From a bacterium (GTDB lineage Bacteria > Patescibacteriota > Microgenomatia > UBA1406 > GWC2-37-13), in NCBI GenBank assembly GCA_021789995.1, contig JAJYIQ010000001.1, positions 496,001 to 560,000 on the forward strand: a DNA stretch of 64,000 nt, given 5' to 3'. Below, piece after piece: positions 1,667 to 33,642 of this stretch (positions are counted from its first letter, which is position 1; every line of letters starts with the position of its first letter). The notes beneath the pieces are model-generated. The model saw only the letters and a program-made list of their open reading frames with translations. It did not search any database and was not told the DNA's origin. A program made the position numbers and the translations under genes.

Positions 1667-2892
1667 TATTCAGTCAAATATGCACCTAACTGTTTAATTT
1701 TCTGGAAAACATAATCCATTTTGTTGAGAAAAGATTGACTGAAATCGGCTGGTTTCGTTCGATAAACTTTTTTAGCGTTGAATCGGCTGATAGTTTTATG
1801 TATGGCCGTCGTCAATTTGTGAAATTGAGCTTCCTGGGAATAATACTTCAATATCCGGTGCCGGGCTTCCCGACCGAGATGGTTAACGAGAATTGGATTA
1901 TCAAGGCAAATTTTCAGAGCCACCGGCAGTTCATGGCGAAGATGCGAAACCGGTAGGATTATGCCGGCTTTATCCAATGCTTCAGTATTGCCGCCGGCAT
2001 CGGAAACAATACACGCCATCTGGCAGGACATTGCTTCCAGTAATGCCAGAGAAGCTCCTTCAAACATTGACGGCAAGACAAATATCTGACAGGCATTCAT
2101 GATATCGATTTTTTCCGTCTCGTCTTTGATAAGACCGGTAAATATAATCCGCTTGTCTTTATACTGCTCCCTCAATTCTTCATCAAGATCGCCGCAGCCG
2201 ACGATAACCAGCTTGATATCCTGGGGGGGATTTAACGACAAAAAAGACCGGATTAATAATTCCGGATTTTTTGGTAACGTCAACCGGCCCAAAAAAAGAA
2301 TACCGGTCTTGATTTTATATTTTACGGCAAAATCGGAAATCTTTTTCTGTTTATAGATATCGGGATTAATACCGTTGGGAAGAATCAACATCTTATTCCT
2401 TTCTACTCCACGATTGGAATAAAAATTAGCCAGTTTATTGGAAAAAACATGCAGCAAATCCAGCTGTTTGCAGAAAGATACATACGCCAGAAATACCGAC
2501 TTGGCCAATACCTGATAGGTACCCGAACTTTTGTTGAAATCAAAATGCCAGACACCGGCCAGCGGAATTTTCAGTTCGCGGCATGTTGACGGTAGAAAAA
2601 AATCCAGCGGCGACAAACCGATCGGCGTATAAACAATATCCGGTCGCAATTCTATCAGGTATTTTTTTAAAAGCGATAAAGACGATTCCGTCGGCAGAAA
2701 AATAAATGACCGCGATTCTGCCAAATAATAGGGTATGCAATAAACATGAGGTTCTTTAACTCTTTTATTGCTGAAGCGGAAAATATACACCTGGTGACCG
2801 GCTGCCGTGAGATATTTATATAAGCGCTGCGTGTAAACGCTGATACCGCCGATTTTCAGCATTTCCTCCCGGTCGAAAAGAACAATTCTCAT
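1666..2892 (-). CDS. Family 4 glycosyltransferase
   Basis: About 408 residues with GT-B architecture. The N-terminal Rossmann half begins MRIVLFDREE and has the acceptor-side GGISVYTQRL segment. The C-terminal half has GRLTLPKNPELLI and the donor-binding EGASLALLEAMSC motif typical of GT4. An upstream in-frame ATG at 2904 exists, but MRIVLF at 2892 fits family N-termini better. It is divergent from the GT2 gene at 2928 with overlapping -10 boxes. Likely part of glycan assembly with the neighbouring transferases. Confidence 0.85.
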   Translation of the reverse strand: MRIVLFDREEMLKIGGISVYTQRLYKYLTAAGHQVYIFRFSNKRVKEPHVYCIPYYLAESRSFIFLPTESSLSLLKKYLIELRPDIVYTPIGLSPLDFFLPSTCRELKIPLAGVWHFDFNKSSGTYQVLAKSVFLAYVSFCKQLDLLHVFSNKLANFYSNRGVERNKMLILPNGINPDIYKQKKISDFAVKYKIKTGILFLGRLTLPKNPELLIRSFLSLNPPQDIKLVIVGCGDLDEELREQYKDKRIIFTGLIKDETEKIDIMNACQIFVLPSMFEGASLALLEAMSCQMACIVSDAGGNTEALDKAGIILPVSHLRHELPVALKICLDNPILVNHLGREARHRILKYYSQEAQFHKLTTAIHKTISRFNAKKVYRTKPADFSQSFLNKMDYVFQKIKQLGAYLTE

Positions 2893-2905
2893 AGATTGCT
2901 GCAAT

Positions 2906-2915
2906 AGTATATAAT
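2906..2915. promoter_or_regulatory. Overlapping divergent -10 boxes
   Basis: The string AGTATATAAT contains TATAAT on the plus strand (2910-2915), 12 nt before the GT2 ATG at 2928, and TATACT on the minus strand (2911-2906), 13 nt before the GT4 ATG at 2892. The whole intergenic gap is 35 bp, so both promoters must share this site. Confidence 0.5.
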
Positions 2916-2927
2916 GATATCATAAAA

Positions 2928-3602
2928 ATGAAAGTTTCTGTTGTTATTCCCGCCTATAATGAAGAAAAATATATTGCCTTTTGCCTGAACAGTCTTGCCC
3001 GACAATCGGTTCCTCCCGATGAAATAATCATTGTTGATAATAACTGCACCGATAAAACCGCCGATATTGCCGGCAAATTCAGCAATGTCCGGATAGTACG
3101 GGAAAATAAGCAAGGAATGATCTTTGCCCGCAATAAAGGCTTTAACGAAGCTAAGGGTGATATCATTGCCCGGTGCGATGCCGATACGATATTGCCGCCA
3201 GACTGGATAAAAAAAATAAAAGCCAATTTTGAGGAAAGACGTATTGATGCACTGACCGGACCGCTTGTTTTTTATGAATCTCCGGTAAAGGGTTTATTTT
3301 TTGTCAAAATGTACTTGAATATAATGAAATATCTTCAGCACGGAAAAGAAATCTTAAACGGTCCGAATATGATTATTACCAAAAAAATCTGGAATAAAGT
3401 AAAAAATAAAGTTTGCCTCGATGATAAAAAAGTCCATGAAGATATCGATTTGGCAATCCATATCCTGCAGGTTAACGGAATAATTTACCGGGATAACACC
3501 CTTGTAATTCAGGAATCGGCCCGCCGGATCACCAGCAATCCACTTAGCTTTTTTGGGGAATACCCATTAAGAATGATCACGACTCTCAAACATCATGGTT
3601 AA
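2928..3602 (+). CDS. Family 2 glycosyltransferase
   Basis: A 224-residue GT-A glycosyltransferase starting VSVVIPAYNEEKY, with the DxD motif in RCDADTILPP (residues 82-91) and a late acidic EDIDLA segment. There are no confident membrane helices. Its 3' end overlaps the start of a small polytopic membrane protein by 8 bp, so the two are translationally coupled. The family transfers an activated sugar to lipid, sugar or protein acceptors; the specific role is not visible. Confidence 0.85.
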   Translation: MKVSVVIPAYNEEKYIAFCLNSLARQSVPPDEIIIVDNNCTDKTADIAGKFSNVRIVRENKQGMIFARNKGFNEAKGDIIARCDADTILPPDWIKKIKANFEERRIDALTGPLVFYESPVKGLFFVKMYLNIMKYLQHGKEILNGPNMIITKKIWNKVKNKVCLDDKKVHEDIDLAIHILQVNGIIYRDNTLVIQESARRITSNPLSFFGEYPLRMITTLKHHG

Positions 3603-4173: not shown

Positions 4174-5932
4174 ACATGTCTGCCAATTCTTGAAGCGAAG
4201 TCACGTCTTCCGGCCGTTTGTCATCGCGGAAGCGCTGCAACCGGGGAAAACGCAAAGCAAAACCGGGAACATCGACTTCAAGCGCGTTACCGCTTTTTGA
4301 CGGCTTAAGCGTCCGGCCGGCCGTATGAACCGGCGAACGGGTTATTTCATCAGCCTTAATCTCAACAACGATGCTTGACGCCAACCACACATCACAATCC
4401 ATCGCCTTATCCACTAAATAATTATTGGGCTTTTTTTGAACTTTGAACTTTGAACTTTGAACTTTTAGCTGACGCCACTCCTCATCGGTTAAACCGGTAC
4501 CGATTTTGGCGACAGTGACGAATTGATCAAATCTTTCATCGAGTATACCGACTAGGAAAGCGCCAATACCGAAATCGGTCCTTTTTCCCTTGCCATAATC
4601 GTAGCCCATAACCAAACAATCGATCGTATCCTCGATTTTGGATGAATAGCTCCGTTTGAATTTAATCCAGTTCCAGCCCCGGGCACCGGCTTGGTAGACG
4701 CCATCTAATTTTTTGGCAACAATTCCTTCCAGTCCTTTGGTAATCGCATCATCAAATAACAATTCCAGCCGTTTGGTATCGGCCGTAATTTCCTCCGGCG
4801 CCGGTAATATCGTCGTCTTAGCCTTATCCGCCGCTTGAATGATCGATATCAGTTCTTTTCTCCTTTCCGCAAAAGACACTTCAATATAACTTTTGCCGTT
4901 AAGGTATAAAAGATCAAAGGCAAAAAGTTTCAGGGGAACTTCCTTGACTTTTTCTTCGATGTCATATTTCCGTTTCCGCTGCACTGTTTCCTGAAAAGGA
5001 AGAAAGTTGCCGGAAACCGGATCATAGCCAATGGCTTCCCCTTCCAAAATGACATTGTCCGCTTTAATTTCTTTTTTAACACCGGCAATGATATCGGGAT
5101 ACATAGACGATACCTCTTCCAGGTTACGGGAATACAGTTTCACTTCATGACCGTTATAATGCACTTGCAAACGGAAGCCGTCGAATTTTTCCTCGACCGC
5201 GCAGCGGCCAATTTTATCGATAATTTCCTTGGCTGACGACAATCTTTCTGCCCGCATCATCAAGATAGGGGTGAATATTTTTGGTTTAACGGTTTTCAAT
5301 CCGCCGATTCCCTCTTTTTTTATTATTTCGGCAATTTCTCCCAGATCCGGCCGCACATGATATGCCCGTTCGATTTCCGGCCTCAGGCTTTTATCACCGT
5401 TCACCATCCAGCTTAAGGCATCAAGGACGGTCATATCGGAAAACCCTAAGCGCATTACCCCCATTGGGATCCGTACCAGATAGCAACAGGATAACGGATC
5501 AAGCTGTCTTATTAAATTGGCGAGAATTTTTATTTTGGTGTCCTGCGACCCCGGGCCGGAAGCCGCTGCCAATTTATACAATTCCCGATAAACTTCCAAT
5601 ACCGATAAATCTTTTTCATCAAAGGAATGAATTTCTTTCTTAAAGTACTCAACCGTTACCCCTAAATCGCCGACTTTTTTGTATTTATTCTCAAATAATT
5701 TCTTTTCCAAATTTAAACCATAAGCGACGCTTTTTATGACCATTTTCTCCGCCATCCCCGATTCGATCTTGGTAAAAAGGGGTGCTACCCTTCCCTGGAG
5801 TAGATAAATTACGTCATGAATTTCCGCCGGGCTCAGTTTGTTGAAAATATCGGCCAAAAGTTCGGTAATTGTCAGTCGAGATGATGTCTCTTCGATTTTG
5901 GCGATATAAACAGCTAAATCTTTAAACTTCAT
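4151..5932 (-). CDS. lig: ATP-dependent DNA ligase, archaeal type
   Basis: A 593-residue ligase that seals nicks using ATP. It has an N-terminal helical DNA-binding domain (about 1-200), the adenylation domain with the active-site lysine in KFDG (249-252), later nucleotidyltransferase motifs (LEGEAIGYD, EGIVAKK, WIKFKRSY) and a C-terminal OB fold. This three-domain form is typical of Archaea and unusual in bacteria, which mainly rely on NAD-dependent LigA. A tandem 7-bp repeat at 4435-4462 is read in frame as an insertion at residues about 489-501. The reverse-strand TATAAA ends 7 nt before the ATG, supporting this start. Confidence 0.93.
   Translation of the reverse strand: MKFKDLAVYIAKIEETSSRLTITELLADIFNKLSPAEIHDVIYLLQGRVAPLFTKIESGMAEKMVIKSVAYGLNLEKKLFENKYKKVGDLGVTVEYFKKEIHSFDEKDLSVLEVYRELYKLAAASGPGSQDTKIKILANLIRQLDPLSCCYLVRIPMGVMRLGFSDMTVLDALSWMVNGDKSLRPEIERAYHVRPDLGEIAEIIKKEGIGGLKTVKPKIFTPILMMRAERLSSAKEIIDKIGRCAVEEKFDGFRLQVHYNGHEVKLYSRNLEEVSSMYPDIIAGVKKEIKADNVILEGEAIGYDPVSGNFLPFQETVQRKRKYDIEEKVKEVPLKLFAFDLLYLNGKSYIEVSFAERRKELISIIQAADKAKTTILPAPEEITADTKRLELLFDDAITKGLEGIVAKKLDGVYQAGARGWNWIKFKRSYSSKIEDTIDCLVMGYDYGKGKRTDFGIGAFLVGILDERFDQFVTVAKIGTGLTDEEWRQLKVQSSKFKVQKKPNNYLVDKAMDCDVWLASSIVVEIKADEITRSPVHTAGRTLKPSKSGNALEVDVPGFALRFPRLQRFRDDKRPEDVTSLQELADMFKAQSHT
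4435..4462. repeat. Four exact 7-bp tandem units inside the ligase gene
   Basis: The unit TTTGAAC occurs four times without mismatch. It lies within the ligase reading frame, which stays open across it and gains a Lys/Val/Gln/Ser-rich segment in the C-terminal OB-fold region. Confidence 0.9.
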
Positions 5933-28701: not shown

Positions 28702-29004
28702 CTATTTCTGCCACTGCGACCGCCGGAGATCGACTTTATTGTTTTTGAAGACGACGCCTTCTGAAAGAAGCATTTTCCGTTTAGTAATAATTCCTCCATT
28801 ACCCGAGTAACCGTGCAAACTACCGTCGGCGGCAACAACACGGTGACATGGTGTTTGCGGCGCATCGGGATTGGTTTTCATGTAATAGCCGACCGCCCGG
28901 CTCGCTTTCGGCTGGCCGGCCAACCGGGCCACCTGTCCGTAAGTGGTTACTTTACCTTTAGGAATTCTCTTTGTTATTCTATATACCTCATCGCGAAATG
29001 ACAT
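28702..29004 (-). CDS. MGMT-family O6-alkylguanine-DNA alkyltransferase-like protein
   Basis: A 100-residue protein equal to the C-terminal catalytic domain of Ogt/Ada. The alkyl-accepting Cys is kept in TPCHRVV (C53), and IPKGKVTTYGQVARLAG forms the helix-turn-helix. Alkyltransferase-like proteins replace this Cys with Trp, so this one should be active. The N-terminal domain of full Ogt is missing. TATAAT ends 6 nt upstream of the ATG. Confidence 0.88.
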   Translation of the reverse strand: MSFRDEVYRITKRIPKGKVTTYGQVARLAGQPKASRAVGYYMKTNPDAPQTPCHRVVAADGSLHGYSGNGGIITKRKMLLSEGVVFKNNKVDLRRSQWQK

Positions 29005-29052
29005 AAAAAAATTATAGCTTCTTTTTGTAAAAATTCAGGAAGAAAATATATC

Positions 29053-29076
29053 TACTTGCGGGGTCGTCTAATGGTA
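29053..29076 (+). repeat. Truncated 5' copy of tRNA-Gln
   Basis: These 24 bases match without mismatch the 5' end of the intact tRNA-Gln at 30415-30438 (acceptor strand, D-arm start) plus four bases upstream. The AAAATATA stretch ahead is also similar. After base 29076 the sequence departs, so only about 20 nt of the tRNA is present and it cannot fold. Confidence 0.85.
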
Positions 29077-29148
29077 AGATTTCGCAACAGTAATTCTCCA
29101 TCTTGACAAAAACTTGTTGATTGTGTTTAAATATAATTAGTGCTTCTT

Positions 29149-30003
29149 ATGAAAAGAAAAAAAATTCATAAAAAGAAACAAAGTAAGCAGTCACAGGTTC
29201 CCTTTGCATATATGAAATATCTTATCATTGCTTCTTTTTGCCTCCTCATTTTTGCCGTAGCGGTAATCGTTTACTCATCCCGCAGTTCGACTCAAGTCTT
29301 AGGCACCAGTACCTATCTGGCGGATAAAGAAAATTCACAGGAAAGCGGAGACACGTCCGGGCAGGAGAAAACTGATCAGGTCGAACCGACCGATGCGCCG
29401 GAAGTCCGCCAGCAAACCGAACAAGTTCAAAAAGAAGTTGAGAGGCAAATTGAAACCAAAAACGTCAATGAGGTGGAAGTACAACCGGCACAAGAAAGCT
29501 CCGGATCAGGAAAAGTCATTCTCCAGCAACGGGAAAAAACCAAAGAATTATCGATTCCCGTATCGTCAACAACTCCCATAACGCAAATCAGTAATCCCCA
29601 GGCCGGTACGGTAAGTGTCCATGTCGGAGGCACAAACAATATTGTCATTGATAACGGTCCATATGTAATCACGACTCAATATCCGGTCGTCATTAATCCC
29701 ACCGATCAAACTCTGGCGATTAAAACACCAAGCGGTGTCACATTGATCAAGACATTCCCCACTCAAGTATTTCAATCCCTACCGGAAAAGAATAAACTTA
29801 CCTCCGTTTCCTCTCTTAATTTAACCGATCAACAAGGAACACCAATTTATCAGGCAAACGGCATACAAGTCCGCAAATTTCTAGGCGTAATACCGGTACA
29901 GGCGACTGTCCAAGAACAAATAAATGCCCAAAACGGACAGGTTGTCAGTTCTGATCTCCCCTGGTATTTTTCCCTCTTCGGTTTTGCATTTCAATCCATA
30001 TAA
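29149..30003 (+). CDS. Membrane-anchored extracellular protein, unknown function
   Basis: About 284 residues: a Lys-rich N-terminus, one helix (YLIIASFCLLIFAVAVIVYS), then VLGTSTYLADKENS, a Glu/Gln/Thr-rich low-complexity stretch (about 60-125) and a beta-rich C-terminal domain (GTVSVHVGGTNNIVI, VRKFLGVIPVQATVQ). The ATG at 29149 follows TATAAT (29132-29137) by 11 nt. No family is recognised. The VLGTST segment after the helix recurs in a decayed reading frame at 31656-32140. Confidence 0.6.
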   Translation: MKRKKIHKKKQSKQSQVPFAYMKYLIIASFCLLIFAVAVIVYSSRSSTQVLGTSTYLADKENSQESGDTSGQEKTDQVEPTDAPEVRQQTEQVQKEVERQIETKNVNEVEVQPAQESSGSGKVILQQREKTKELSIPVSSTTPITQISNPQAGTVSVHVGGTNNIVIDNGPYVITTQYPVVINPTDQTLAIKTPSGVTLIKTFPTQVFQSLPEKNKLTSVSSLNLTDQQGTPIYQANGIQVRKFLGVIPVQATVQEQINAQNGQVVSSDLPWYFSLFGFAFQSI

Positions 30004-30082
30004 TGCTTGGCTAAGATCGTTGATGATGATTTATCCAGAATCTCTATTACTGCTGTGGATAACCCGGCTTCATCTTTAAGCT

Positions 30083-30273
30083 TTATGCTCTCTTATTAGA
30101 GAGTTTACCGCTGATGATTTTATGCGCTTTGGTAATCTGTTTCTTGATGTTTTTCAAATCCAATACCGCCCGCTTCTCCCGATACTGATAGATAACGGTG
30201 AACCTGATTGGTCAACCAGAAGCCCAACGATAATTTACGGTTCAAGGTGTCTTTTTGACAAGTCATTAGCCAC
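30083..30273 (-). pseudogene. Relic of an IS4/IS1634-type transposase
   Basis: Read on the minus strand, one frame gives IIVGLLVDQSGSPLSI, like the block before the second catalytic Asp region of IS1634-type transposases. A shifted frame then gives EKRAVLDLKNIKKQITKAHK and ends at a stop at 30083. The two blocks are normally far apart, so there is an internal deletion and at least one frameshift. Family assignment is by eye only. Confidence 0.45.
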
Positions 30274-30282
30274 AAATTACCT

Positions 30283-30304
30283 ATGTATTGATTAACCAAT
30301 ACAT
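30283..30304. promoter_or_regulatory. 22-bp near-palindrome
   Basis: ATGTATTG (30283-30290) and CAATACAT (30297-30304) are exact inverted arms around ATTAAC. It could be a protein-binding site or leftover end of the decayed element beside it. No assigned gene is near enough to choose. Confidence 0.35.
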
Positions 30305-30418
30305 ATGTGTACTTCTCCTTTCATTGGAATAAATCATTTCTTCAATTGCCCTTGACGCTATTTATATAAATAGAAACATTGGTAAATACCGCCCGATTTC
30401 AGTAAAATATACCTTACT

Positions 30419-30490
30419 TGCGGGGTCGTCTAATGGTAGGACAGCAGACTTTGGATCTGCCTATTCTAGGTTCGACTCCTAGCCCCGCAG
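30419..30490 (+). tRNA. tRNA-Gln (TTG anticodon)
   Basis: A 72-nt cloverleaf: acceptor TGCGGGG/CCCCGCA, D-arm with TCTAATGGTAGGA, anticodon stem CAGAC/GTCTG-like with loop carrying TTG, and the T-arm CTAGGTTCGACTCCTAG. The discriminator is G, normal for Gln, and CCA is not encoded. A promoter with TAAAAT lies 10 nt upstream. An insertion sequence begins 10 bp after its 3' end. Confidence 0.95.
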
Positions 30491-30500
30491 CAAGAGAAGC

Positions 30501-31632
30501 GTAACAAAAACGACAGTTATCGATTAAAAAAGGAGCGGTAGATTAACCCGCTCTTTTTTTGTCTGATCCACCCCTCTTTTACCTCTTAAGTATCTGAATC
30601 GGAAACGACAATCGGTGAATTTGGTAAATCTTCTTTTAAGCACATAGCCGTTTAACCACAGCCGGGCATATTCTACCGTTTGGAATGACCGTAGCTTTTG
30701 CAGTCTGGCTTCCAAATGACCATTTAATCCCTCAATTAAGTTAGTGGTGAGAGGCGCTTGTGGTATTCCCCGATAAGCGAGTAATTCAGATTTGTATTTT
30801 TCAATATTGGTGAGCACTTGCAGGCAAATATGATCATGACTGTAATCCCGATAAAGCGTAAATAGCCAATGATTAAATGTTTCATTAGCAAGTTTTTGGG
30901 ACGAGTTAAGGATTGATTCAATTCGGGTCATGAAATCCCGATATTGATCCTTTCCTTCCGACCGAATTCTCAAATCACGCCGGATGTTTTCTTTGAAATG
31001 GTTGTAACAGGTTTGGATTTTAACGGCCGGAAAAGCATCCCGGGCCGCCATCTTCAGATTAGTGTTATCATCACAGACTAAAAGTTGGGGGAAAACGGTT
31101 AAGATACGAAAATACGAAAAGAATTTTCTCCATGACTGATAGTTCTCTGAGGGAGCAATGGTAAAAACCGGAATATCATGGCGAAGATAGTCCACTCCCC
31201 AAAGGAGCACCCAATCATATTCATCCGTGGCGACATTGAAGTATTTCCCGTCAAACAAAAAGATCTGTGAGAAGCGATTGCAGAAGTTAAAAGTGAATTG
31301 GTTGTTGTTAAGCAGCTTTTTCAGTTCCTCTTCACAGATGCGCCAGGCGGTCATATGAGAAATGTGGTATTTGTTGGCCAGTGCTCTAAACGATAACCCA
31401 TCCAGATGGTCGGAAAGAATCGATTTTCTATCGAGCCAACGAGTATTTATCGAGAAATACTGCCGGCATGATTGACAAAGGAAAACGATACTATTACCTC
31501 TTTTCCTTTGTCTGGAAACATTTTTAGTGGAAAAACAAACGGGGCATTTGAACTTTTTCATATACCCCATCTTTTAACAATTATGTTATGATTACAAGTA
31601 GAATTATCATTTGTAACTGACAGTTTTGTTAC
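30501..31632. mobile_element. Insertion sequence with terminal inverted repeats
   Basis: An 1132-bp unit bounded by GTAACAAAAACGACAGTTA (30501-30519) and the inverted match of TAACTGACAGTTTTGTTAC (31614-31632), 16 of 19 positions identical. It carries one full-length transposase gene on the minus strand. No clear target duplication touches the ends; CCGCAGC occurs near both sides but at unequal distance. The intact frame suggests a fairly recent arrival behind tRNA-Gln. Confidence 0.8.
30524..31570 (-). CDS. DDE transposase with N-terminal zinc ribbon
   Basis: A 348-residue transposase. It has a zinc ribbon (C9, C12, C32, C35), a helix-turn-helix (LSFRALANKYHISHMTAWRIC, about 60-80) and an RNase H-like catalytic core: IFLFDGKYFNV with the first Asp, LLVCDDNTNLKMAARDAFP with the second, and TTNLIEGLNGHLEARLQKLR with the Glu, as in MULE/IS256-like enzymes. 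All three acidic residues are present, so it is probably active. The exact IS family cannot be fixed by eye. ATG codons at 31570 and 31561 are both possible starts. Confidence 0.85.
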   Translation of the reverse strand: MGYMKKFKCPVCFSTKNVSRQRKRGNSIVFLCQSCRQYFSINTRWLDRKSILSDHLDGLSFRALANKYHISHMTAWRICEEELKKLLNNNQFTFNFCNRFSQIFLFDGKYFNVATDEYDWVLLWGVDYLRHDIPVFTIAPSENYQSWRKFFSYFRILTVFPQLLVCDDNTNLKMAARDAFPAVKIQTCYNHFKENIRRDLRIRSEGKDQYRDFMTRIESILNSSQKLANETFNHWLFTLYRDYSHDHICLQVLTNIEKYKSELLAYRGIPQAPLTTNLIEGLNGHLEARLQKLRSFQTVEYARLWLNGYVLKRRFTKFTDCRFRFRYLRGKRGVDQTKKERVNLPLLF

Positions 31633-31655
31633 GGTACCGCAGCCAGCGGCAATAA

Positions 31656-32140
31656 CTAACCTTTATCGCCAAAAAGATATGTGTTTTATCCCTGCTTATT
31701 TTAGATAACGATGGTCGAGGTACCAATATCTTAAAAAGTTTTCCTTCTGCCTCTTATTTAATTTTGCCCGAAAAAATTTCAACGGAGGAGGAAAATGCGC
31801 AGAAAAAACTTCTCTCTGACGCTTAAGTTTTAGGGGCGACCACTGACAATAATCAGATAAAATTTTATAGCGAAGGAGATGTTTTAGGAACGAGCACCGA
31901 ACAACAAATACAAGAGGAAAAGAAATTTAGCCTATCCAAATTTTTTCTGGGAACTCCTGAAACAGTTGACAGATTTATTTTAATTCGATGGGGAAAAATA
32001 CTCATTTTATAACGTTATCCAACCTTCTTACGGTATTTATTTCAATCGGTCCAAAATTTTTTTGCCAATAATTTTTCCTCTATTCTTTCTTTGGAGGCTG
32101 GTTGGTGGAAATATTTGATAGACTTGTTAAATGGGCGCGG
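31656..32140 (+). pseudogene. Decayed gene for an extracellular-type protein
   Basis: One plus-strand frame from 31656 reads as coherent protein broken by TAA at 31824-31826 and TAA at 32010-32012. It includes DNDGRGTNILKSFPSASYLI, then KISTEEENAQKKLLSDA, stop, VLGATTDNNQIKFYSEGDVL, GTSTEQQIQEEKKFSLSKFF and, after the second stop, FANNFSSILSLEAGWWKYL. The VLGT motifs recall the anchored protein at 29149-30003. The 5' end was lost, possibly with arrival of the insertion sequence. It fills the gap from 31633 to the next gene. Confidence 0.45.
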
Positions 32141-33642
32141 AACAGCGTAGCACATCTAATAATCAATCACTGGCGACAGATTTATCACTCATGGATACGG
32201 TACAAAACAAGCGCAGTAGCCTAGAACGGGATATTATGACGCTGAGAGCAACACCTCAAACCGTTATCTCATGGTATTTCAATCATGATCCCCTTAAAGA
32301 GCTTGATGCGTACCGGAATGCGGTTGCTCTAACAACAGGCAGCCGTCGCGATATAGCGGAACCAATAATTTCCGATAGCAGGCATAAAACAATATCGGAA
32401 GCGGGCGCGGCTATTCTCATGATGAATATTGCTTTTCCTGAATTAAATGGATTGATCGGGGAAGCATATACGGACCGGTTTGCGGAAATCATCCAACGTA
32501 ATACTACCGAGAATAAACGGGAAGATAAAAATATTATTATAGGCACTCTTGATCTTGTCGCTTTTACTCTTTATACATTACACCAAAGTAGTGGAAAAAG
32601 GGATCTATACACTCGCACTGAATTGGAACATATGAAAATTGCCGCCGATTTATTGATTTATGCCTCTATTGCTAATGTACAAGAACCAACGGACGTAACA
32701 GTAAAGATAGATAATCGTACCAGGAAAATGACGAGGGAAGGCATTAACCGGTTATATGCATTGGATATATACCAATCCGTCGCCGACTATGGCTTATCAC
32801 AAAAAGCCGATGAGATATCTCAACTTATCGGACTGGAAAGTCTCATGTCTTATGCAACGGTGTTTTTAAATGCCGCTAGATTGCCAACAGTAAGAAAGAG
32901 AGCGGGATTGTCTCAGCAAAAGCAATTACTGGGCCGCATGATCGATGCCGTCGAACACATTTTTGTTGAGCATCCGGAACGGTTGAATGACGAAAACCGG
33001 GGCCGATATCAGGGTAAACTGCATGAATTGATGTGGTTTATCGATATGCAGTTTTATATTGAAACGGCACACAAGTACTACATACAACTTTATCCGGCCC
33101 AACGAGCAGAAGACCAACCACATATCGAATATCCAAGCATTAATCGGGGATTTGATTATCGGTTGCGAGATGCTAGGAACGATCAGTTTATTCTGGTACA
33201 GTTAAAGTCAGGAAAAAAAGGGCATCAATATCATCCGTTAATTAAGGTTCTTAAAGATCCGCAAATGATTGATTATAATCCGGAACAACTACGGGAAAAA
33301 GTCGCATCATACCGAAAAGCGATTATGGCGGACTTTGCCGATCCGGCTATCAGTGCGCATCTTTTGCCTTCAATCTGTCAGGCGGCAACCGAGCTGGAAA
33401 CAAACAGTCATAATCTCTTGGAATATGTTAATCAAAACCAGGATCTGGGTGGTGACTTTGATACACGGCCAATGTCAAGACAACAAAGAAGATATTACCA
33501 GAGACAGTTGCGCAAAATGCAGGAAAAAACACATCGACAGCTGGAAAGACAACATATTCCCAGTCAAAAGTCGATGACGATTGATGCGTTAACTAAAGTG
33601 TTGGAAAGCTATTATGTTCCTCCGACTCCGAAAAAGAAATAA
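32131..33642 (+). CDS. Unrecognised 503-residue protein with nuclease-like motif
   Basis: A soluble, mostly helical protein with no signal peptide or membrane helix. The one suggestive block is GFDYRLRD (340-347) followed by FILVQLKSGK (353-362). An Asp, a short spacer, then a hydrophobic strand ending QxK is the pattern of PD-(D/E)xK-fold nucleases that use Gln in the second position. A helical Glu (KLHEL, about 299) could be the first acidic residue. The C-terminus is basic (RQQRRYYQRQLRK). It lies in the accessory island. Function is unknown; nuclease is a hypothesis. Confidence 0.6.
   Translation: MGAEQRSTSNNQSLATDLSLMDTVQNKRSSLERDIMTLRATPQTVISWYFNHDPLKELDAYRNAVALTTGSRRDIAEPIISDSRHKTISEAGAAILMMNIAFPELNGLIGEAYTDRFAEIIQRNTTENKREDKNIIIGTLDLVAFTLYTLHQSSGKRDLYTRTELEHMKIAADLLIYASIANVQEPTDVTVKIDNRTRKMTREGINRLYALDIYQSVADYGLSQKADEISQLIGLESLMSYATVFLNAARLPTVRKRAGLSQQKQLLGRMIDAVEHIFVEHPERLNDENRGRYQGKLHELMWFIDMQFYIETAHKYYIQLYPAQRAEDQPHIEYPSINRGFDYRLRDARNDQFILVQLKSGKKGHQYHPLIKVLKDPQMIDYNPEQLREKVASYRKAIMADFADPAISAHLLPSICQAATELETNSHNLLEYVNQNQDLGGDFDTRPMSRQQRRYYQRQLRKMQEKTHRQLERQHIPSQKSMTIDALTKVLESYYVPPTPKKK

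What the first reader, a model, noticed from the sequence alone, without database searches (positions are those of the whole stretch)
29053..30490. Exact 24-bp duplication of the tRNA-Gln 5' end flanks a 1.36-kb segment
The piece 29053-29076 repeats 30415-30438, with some upstream similarity. Between the copies are a hypothetical surface gene and a transposase relic. The layout looks like an integration or recombination scar using the 5' half of a tRNA, whereas most elements use the 3' half.
Basis: partly seen in the sequence, partly recalled or inferred. Interest (0 to 1): 0.6.

Follow-up and report, generated by a model that had tools for sequence, protein, structure and literature searches.

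The report
Truncated tRNA-Gln copy beside intact gene
A broken copy of the first 20 bases of a glutamine tRNA gene lies 1.4 kb before the intact gene in a Candidate-Phyla-Radiation bacterium; it most likely is a remodelled scar of a widespread, apparently undescribed process in these bacteria in which tRNA genes are interrupted in the D arm, usually by a small GIY-YIG endonuclease gene that rebuilds the tRNA behind it.

Summary
The repeat is real: 29053-29076 equals 30415-30438, and with one gap 29043-29079 matches 30404-30441 at 35/38 positions. The upstream copy is nt 1-20 of tRNA-Gln(UUG) plus a promoter-like leader; it stops in the D loop. The segment between holds a one-TM protein gene and a doubtful IS1634 remnant, with no integrase. 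No relative with a syntenic empty site exists in the data held.

Relatives show that the shape recurs. I found 41 distinct same-strand 5' tRNA fragments lying upstream of their intact tRNA; 39 end at nt 12-25. In 33 a 78-90 aa GIY-YIG endonuclease ORF lies between, nearly always after a GC-rich hairpin. It affects many isotypes in many CPR lineages, sometimes in long tandem arrays, and this genome has such elements at tRNA-Pro and tRNA-Asn. The nearest known system is phage SegB; I found no description in CPR.

The window's copy shares the endpoint, side and orientation, but lacks the GIY-YIG gene and the hairpin, and its spacing is longer. I rate it probably a remodelled scar of the same D-arm interruption process (0.5), not a proven member. 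A promoter-plus-tRNA duplication unrelated to GIY-YIG is the main rival.

The parts
29043..29079 (+). Truncated upstream copy: promoter-like leader plus tRNA-Gln nt 1-20 (29057-29076), similarity ending in the D loop at 29079
   Evidence: nothing tRNA-like continues after it (shuffle p 0.83); no hairpin in the next 60 nt, MFE -3.6 kcal/mol against -6.4 to -39.4 in the other 40 fragments
29149..30003 (+). 284-aa protein with one N-terminal TM segment and an extracytoplasmic domain; relatives in 9 of 57 related genomes, the best (61% identity) not near any tRNA
30036..30298 (-). Possible decayed transposase remnant (IS1634-like), not significant
   Evidence: best E 0.029, below cut-off
30404..30418 (+). 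Leader of the intact tRNA gene (AAAATATACCTTACT), similar to the leader of the truncated copy and to that of tRNA-Gln(UUG) in genome G030 of another genus
30419..30491 (+). Intact tRNA-Gln(UUG)
   Evidence: Rfam tRNA 61.9 bits
30500..31633 (-). Neighbour, not part of the repeat-bounded segment: IS256-like insertion sequence, transposase 30524-31570, inverted repeats 30500-30519 and 31614-31633 (17/20)
28702..29004 (-). Neighbour: MGMT-like DNA-binding-domain protein (PF01035), divergent from the truncated copy

Best explanation
The upstream copy is the scar of an event that broke tRNA-Gln in its D loop and left its first 20 nt behind while an intact gene was re-established downstream. In this lineage such events are made mainly by small free-standing GIY-YIG endonuclease genes that sit between a D-arm-terminated 5' tRNA fragment (with a GC hairpin) and the restored tRNA. 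In the window the endonuclease and hairpin are absent: either they were lost when the stretch was remodelled by later rearrangement, or a GIY-YIG enzyme encoded elsewhere in the genome made the break in trans. Shown: the repeat, its endpoint, and the recurrence and anatomy of the GIY-YIG class in relatives and in this genome. Inferred: that the D loop is the cleavage site, that repair copies the 5' half, and that the window's scar arose in this way.
For: The window fragment ends at tRNA nt 20; the exact runs in 31 of 33 GIY-YIG cases end at nt 12-25, eight of them at 21. In an unbiased look at all tRNAs of three genomes, 8 fragments that start at nt 1 were flagged by the scan and a ninth (own tRNA-Asn, hidden from ARAGORN by an intron) by eye; 7 of the 9 enclose a GIY-YIG ORF. 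This genome has such elements at tRNA-Pro(UGG) and tRNA-Asn (Pfam PF01541 at E 8e-16 and 2e-13), so the agent is present. tRNA-Gln is the commonest associated isotype (19 of 80 tRNA-linked GIY-YIG proteins), and relatives G031, G032 and G064 of the same family carry it at tRNA-Gln. Scars without GIY-YIG exist elsewhere (G020 and G032 tRNA-Leu, G252 tRNA-Gln).
Against: No GIY-YIG relic in the segment (HMM and tblastn) and no hairpin. Spacing 1362 bp against 65-684 bp in all others. In GIY-YIG cases that I read, the ORF runs up to or into the tRNA with no promoter between, whereas here the intact gene has its own promoter-like leader, similar to the fragment's. No syntenic empty site. Most of the 41 loci were collected through GIY-YIG hits, so 33/41 overstates the share.
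Confidence: 0.5

Rival explanations
1. Ordinary duplication of the tRNA-Gln gene with its promoter, or template switching during repair, followed by loss of most of the first copy and arrival of the 284-aa gene by IS-aided rearrangement. No dedicated tRNA-targeting machinery.
For: The similarity includes about 10-15 nt of leader, i.e. promoter as well as tRNA. There is an IS256-like element 9 bp behind the tRNA and perhaps an IS1634 remnant inside the segment. The 284-aa gene is not tRNA-linked in its best relative G011.
Against: Similarity breaks sharply at nt 20-23 and nothing tRNA-like follows (p 0.83), not the even decay of a dead copy. The endpoint falls in the D-arm hot spot. The leader similarity may only reflect a conserved tRNA promoter: G030, another genus, matches the fragment and its leader as well (34/37).
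Confidence: 0.35
2. Scar of a tyrosine-integrase island that used the 5' side of tRNA-Gln as its attachment site.
For: A 5' fragment upstream and an intact tRNA downstream is the right arrangement; 159 of 3919 Islander islands have 5' fragments (PMC4383910).
Against: No integrase between the copies; the segment is shorter than any accepted island; known crossovers lie in the anticodon loop, T loop or T/acceptor junction, with archaeal att sites only reaching over the D loop (PMC8371274).
Confidence: 0.07
3. The fragment is kept because it acts as a promoter/leader for the 284-aa gene (tRNA promoter capture), whatever its origin.
For: The fragment's -10-like AAAATATA leader is intact and the ORF starts about 70 nt after the fragment on the same strand.
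Against: No expression data; a further AT-rich promoter-like stretch lies between; the homologue in G011 has no such fragment.
Confidence: 0.08

Closest known systems
Phage T4/T6 SegB, free-standing GIY-YIG homing endonuclease of the tRNA region (PMC13096335)
   Same: GIY-YIG nuclease next to tRNAs of many isotypes; cuts inside tRNA genes; drives tandem amplification of a tRNA-segB unit, with microhomology between the tRNA 5' end and the segB 3' end. The CPR elements also have the ORF end at or in the tRNA 5' end and form tandem arrays (G005).
   Different: SegB is a phage gene; the CPR ORFs are only 78-90 aa, chromosomal, and carry a D-arm hairpin and a 5' tRNA half. The window's segment has no such gene.
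tDNA islands of the Islander type (tyrosine integrase)
   Same: tRNA fragment on one side, restored tRNA on the other
   Different: No integrase, 1.36 kb only, crossover in the D loop, 5' fragment (about 4% of known islands)
CPR rRNA introns with LAGLIDADG/GIY-YIG homing endonucleases (PMC11270868)
   Same: Same bacteria, homing-endonuclease insertions in stable-RNA genes
   Different: Those are introns in rRNA genes; the paper does not mention tRNA. The tRNA-linked GIY-YIG ORFs are not in introns.
Palindromic elements inserted in genes (Rickettsia RPE; known to me mainly from general knowledge)
   Same: Short GC-rich palindromes placed in structural genes
   Different: Here tied to tRNA D arms and to a GIY-YIG ORF; absent from the window's copy

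Membership tests
CPR tRNA-linked GIY-YIG / hairpin element (as delimited here from relatives) | Same-strand 5' tRNA fragment upstream of the intact tRNA, ending in the D arm | tested here: met
   Window fragment nt 1-20; 39 of 41 collected fragments end at nt 12-25
CPR tRNA-linked GIY-YIG / hairpin element (as delimited here from relatives) | GIY-YIG ORF between fragment and tRNA | tested here: not met
   No hit by HMM or tblastn in the window segment
CPR tRNA-linked GIY-YIG / hairpin element (as delimited here from relatives) | GC-rich hairpin directly after the fragment | tested here: not met
   MFE -3.6 kcal/mol, the weakest of the 41
CPR tRNA-linked GIY-YIG / hairpin element (as delimited here from relatives) | Copy-to-copy spacing of about 300-390 bp per unit | tested here: not met
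   1362 bp
Tyrosine-integrase tDNA island | Integrase gene inside | tested here: not met
   Only the 284-aa ORF and a doubtful transposase remnant lie between the copies
Tyrosine-integrase tDNA island | Crossover at anticodon loop, T loop or T/acceptor junction | tested here: not met
   Ends at nt 20-23, D loop; subsites from PMC4383910
Tyrosine-integrase tDNA island | Empty site in relatives | tested here: inconclusive
   No synteny in the other species of the genus
SegB-type free-standing homing endonuclease locus | Demonstrated cleavage of the tRNA gene and DSB-driven spread | not testable with these tools
   Needs biochemistry

The most novel reading that the evidence does not exclude
CPR bacteria carry an undescribed family of minimal homing elements (GC hairpin + 78-90 aa GIY-YIG endonuclease) that enter the D arm of tRNA genes of most isotypes and rebuild the tRNA from a copied 5' half, and the window's scar is a cargo-bearing, endonuclease-less descendant of one, possibly moved in trans by the GIY-YIG enzymes encoded at tRNA-Pro and tRNA-Asn of the same genome.
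Probability: 0.25. Interest if true: 0.8.

Novelty: new variant of a known kind. Interest (0 to 1): 0.55.

Why it matters
If the GIY-YIG reading holds, tRNA genes of CPR bacteria are homing sites for some of the smallest mobile elements known, which spread by breaking an essential gene and handing back a repaired copy. It would explain the tRNA 5' fragments and the tandem arrays in these genomes, make D-arm cleavage directly testable with short purified enzymes, and extend to cellular chromosomes what has just been shown for phage SegB. The window's own scar would then show that such events can leave unrelated host genes lodged between a tRNA's start and its intact copy.

Tried and rejected
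Empty site in relatives: the genus has two species; G001 has no match to the left flank and no MGMT hit, and the 503-aa right-hand gene has no relative in 96 genomes. MGMT neighbourhoods in six other genomes hold no tRNA. A complete but decayed tRNA after the fragment: alignment no better than shuffles (p 0.83). Leader similarity beyond the conserved promoter: borderline (p 0.06). GIY-YIG remnant in the segment: none. First genome-contig scan with the 284-aa protein found nothing. The viral collection gave one GIY-YIG relative, grouped with tRNA-Lys, so no evidence that phages spread the family. Rfam matches besides tRNA near the window feature (RNase_P of Plasmodium, mir-553, SNORD50) are chance. 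Tree of tRNA-linked GIY-YIG proteins: isotype is clustered (42 changes, shuffled mean 56.4, 0 of 200 as low), but only 86 columns, few resolved forks.

Full report
WHAT IS IN THE WINDOW. The reported repeat is exact over 24 nt (29053-29076 and 30415-30438) and extends with one gap to 29043-29079 against 30404-30441, 35 of 38 columns identical. The downstream copy is the 5' end of an intact tRNA-Gln(UUG), 30419-30491. The upstream copy holds tRNA nt 1-20 and a leader; after nt 20-23, in the D loop, the similarity stops, and the next 90 nt resemble the rest of the tRNA no better than shuffled sequence. In the whole 898-kb genome no further fragment of this tRNA exists. The 1.3 kb between the copies holds a 284-aa protein gene (29149-30003) without Pfam or NCBIfam match and a stretch whose best match is IS1634 transposase at E=0.029, not significant. 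Behind the tRNA lies an IS256-like element with inverted repeats 30500-30519 and 31614-31633.

THE ORGANISM. So the window comes from a CPR (Patescibacteria, Microgenomates side) bacterium.

NO EMPTY SITE TO COMPARE. Only one other species of the genus is held. It shows no match to the left flank and no MGMT; the right-hand 503-aa gene was found in none of 95 relatives.

THE SHAPE RECURS. A search of 72 family genomes for the tRNA-Gln 5' motif gave same-strand pairs in G031, G032 and G064 besides the window's genome. In each, 320-334 bp separate fragment and tRNA, and the gap encodes a small GIY-YIG protein (in G031 its frame is broken into two pieces). Searching the family with one such protein gave about 100 hits; 26 or so of the 30 loci fetched lie beside a tRNA of one of many isotypes. 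A scan of 84,980 species genomes with an alignment of twelve gave 80 best loci: 44 of 56 from CPR records lie next to a same-strand tRNA, 4 of 24 others do, and those four are records titled only 'bacterium'; none from a named non-CPR phylum does.

ANATOMY OF THE CLASS. Reading examples at tRNA-Asn, Ser, Met, Lys, Val, Gly, Pro and Gln: tRNA nt 1 to about 20, a GC-rich hairpin in the D loop, often a further stretch of tRNA up to the anticodon, a short spacer, the GIY-YIG ORF of 78-90 codons, then directly the intact tRNA, whose first bases often supply the ORF's last codons and stop. In G005 thirteen such units of 357 bp stand in tandem before tRNA-Ser. Some loci have the mirror arrangement, tRNA then GIY-YIG then a 3' fragment (for example tRNA-Phe and tRNA-Lys). 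Catalytic-domain identity is clear (PF01541). Their isotypes are clustered on a protein tree, and the nearest relatives of the Gln-linked ones in Vogel-, Kaiser-, Giovannoni- and Moranbacteria also sit at tRNA-Gln, which fits target-specific spread; the tree is short and weakly resolved.

THE SAME CLASS IN THIS GENOME. tRNA-Pro(UGG) on contig C2 has a 5' copy (nt 1-19), hairpins, a GIY-YIG ORF and the intact tRNA. tRNA-Asn on the same contig has a 5' copy with its D loop replaced by TCCGCCAGCTGGCGGA, a GIY-YIG ORF running into the tRNA, and a group I intron with an ORF at the anticodon. A GIY-YIG ORF also lies between tRNA-Arg and tRNA-Lys, without a 5' fragment. Of the 39 tRNAs that ARAGORN finds here, only Pro(UGG) and Gln(UUG) have a 5' partial copy within reach; Asn is the third once its intron is allowed for.

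HOW THE WINDOW'S COPY COMPARES. I compiled 41 distinct 5' fragments. 33 enclose a GIY-YIG ORF. Exact matching ends at nt 12-25 in 31 of these 33 and at nt 12-20 in all 8 others, the window included. The window is the outlier in three ways: longest spacing (1362 bp against 65-684), no hairpin (MFE -3.6, the weakest of all), no GIY-YIG. It also has a promoter-like leader before the intact tRNA, which the GIY-YIG loci that I read do not. In three genomes examined at all their tRNAs, 7 of 9 fragments that start at nt 1 enclose GIY-YIG, so GIY-less scars are a minority but real (tRNA-Leu in G020, tRNA-Gln in G252). Most of the 41 were found through GIY-YIG hits, so that ratio is biased upwards.

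MECHANISM. The likeliest course is a break in the D arm of tRNA-Gln, repair that left the first 20 nt behind and restored an intact gene downstream, and later remodelling that brought in or kept the 284-aa gene and removed any endonuclease. Phage SegB, a GIY-YIG enzyme, is shown to cut inside tRNA genes and to cause tandem amplification through microhomology between a tRNA 5' end and the segB 3' end, and it is widely tRNA-linked (PMC13096335). That cleavage by the CPR proteins occurs in the D arm is inferred from endpoints only. The main rival is a plain duplication of promoter and tRNA start; the leader similarity favours it, but the same leader is conserved in another genus, so it may only be a working tRNA promoter.

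KNOWN OR NEW. tDNA islands need an integrase and cross over at the anticodon loop or the T side; 159 of 3919 have a 5' fragment (PMC4383910). The window meets neither requirement. CPR rRNA introns with homing endonucleases are described (PMC11270868, no mention of tRNA). Eight searches of the paper library found nothing on GIY-YIG genes at CPR tRNA genes; preprints and most subscription papers are not held, so this is weak evidence of novelty. I file the window's feature as a GIY-less scar resembling that class, not as a member.

Noticed in passing
L231 (G000:C2:6000-10500), about 1964-2400, minus strand: In the window's own genome tRNA-Pro(UGG) has an upstream 5' copy (nt 1-19) with three hairpins and an acceptor-stem-like end (CGTCCCGACC), then a GIY-YIG ORF, then the intact tRNA. 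The upstream piece could still fold like a tRNA.
   Followed up: partly
L276 (G000:C2:22500-28500), about 2550-3450, minus strand: tRNA-Asn(GUU) is split at the anticodon by a 517-nt group I intron (Rfam 77 bits) with an HNH-like ORF and stands directly behind a GIY-YIG ORF and a 5' copy with a palindrome in its D loop: two kinds of endonuclease insertion in one tRNA gene.
   Followed up: partly
L140 (G005:C2:1-4400) and L141 end: Tandem array of 13 or more near-identical 357-bp units (tRNA-Ser 5' part + hairpin + GIY-YIG ORF) ending at one intact tRNA-Ser; it runs off a contig end, so the true copy number is unknown.
   Followed up: partly
L091 (G252:C1), 1150-1300: Two GIY-less tandem units before tRNA-Gln whose hairpin is an inverted copy of the tRNA D arm itself (TAATGGTAAGC...GCTTGCCATTA), as if synthesis had snapped back at the D loop.
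   Followed up: no
L054 (G053:C1:25000-37000), 5700-5900 minus; L090 (G253:C61), 2310-2510: A complete tRNA-Gln with a different acceptor stem sits between the 5' and 3' parts of another tRNA-Gln, i.e. a tRNA gene nested in a tRNA gene.
   Followed up: no
window 31634-31650: The sequence just beyond the right end of the IS256-like element (CCGCAGCCAG) equals the tRNA-Gln 3' end plus downstream bases in G030 (CCCCGCAGCCAG); it may be chance or a tRNA 3' remnant. No target-site duplication is evident.
   Followed up: no
window 32131-33642: 503-aa ORF with no Pfam match above cut-off and no relative in 95 related genomes.
   Followed up: no
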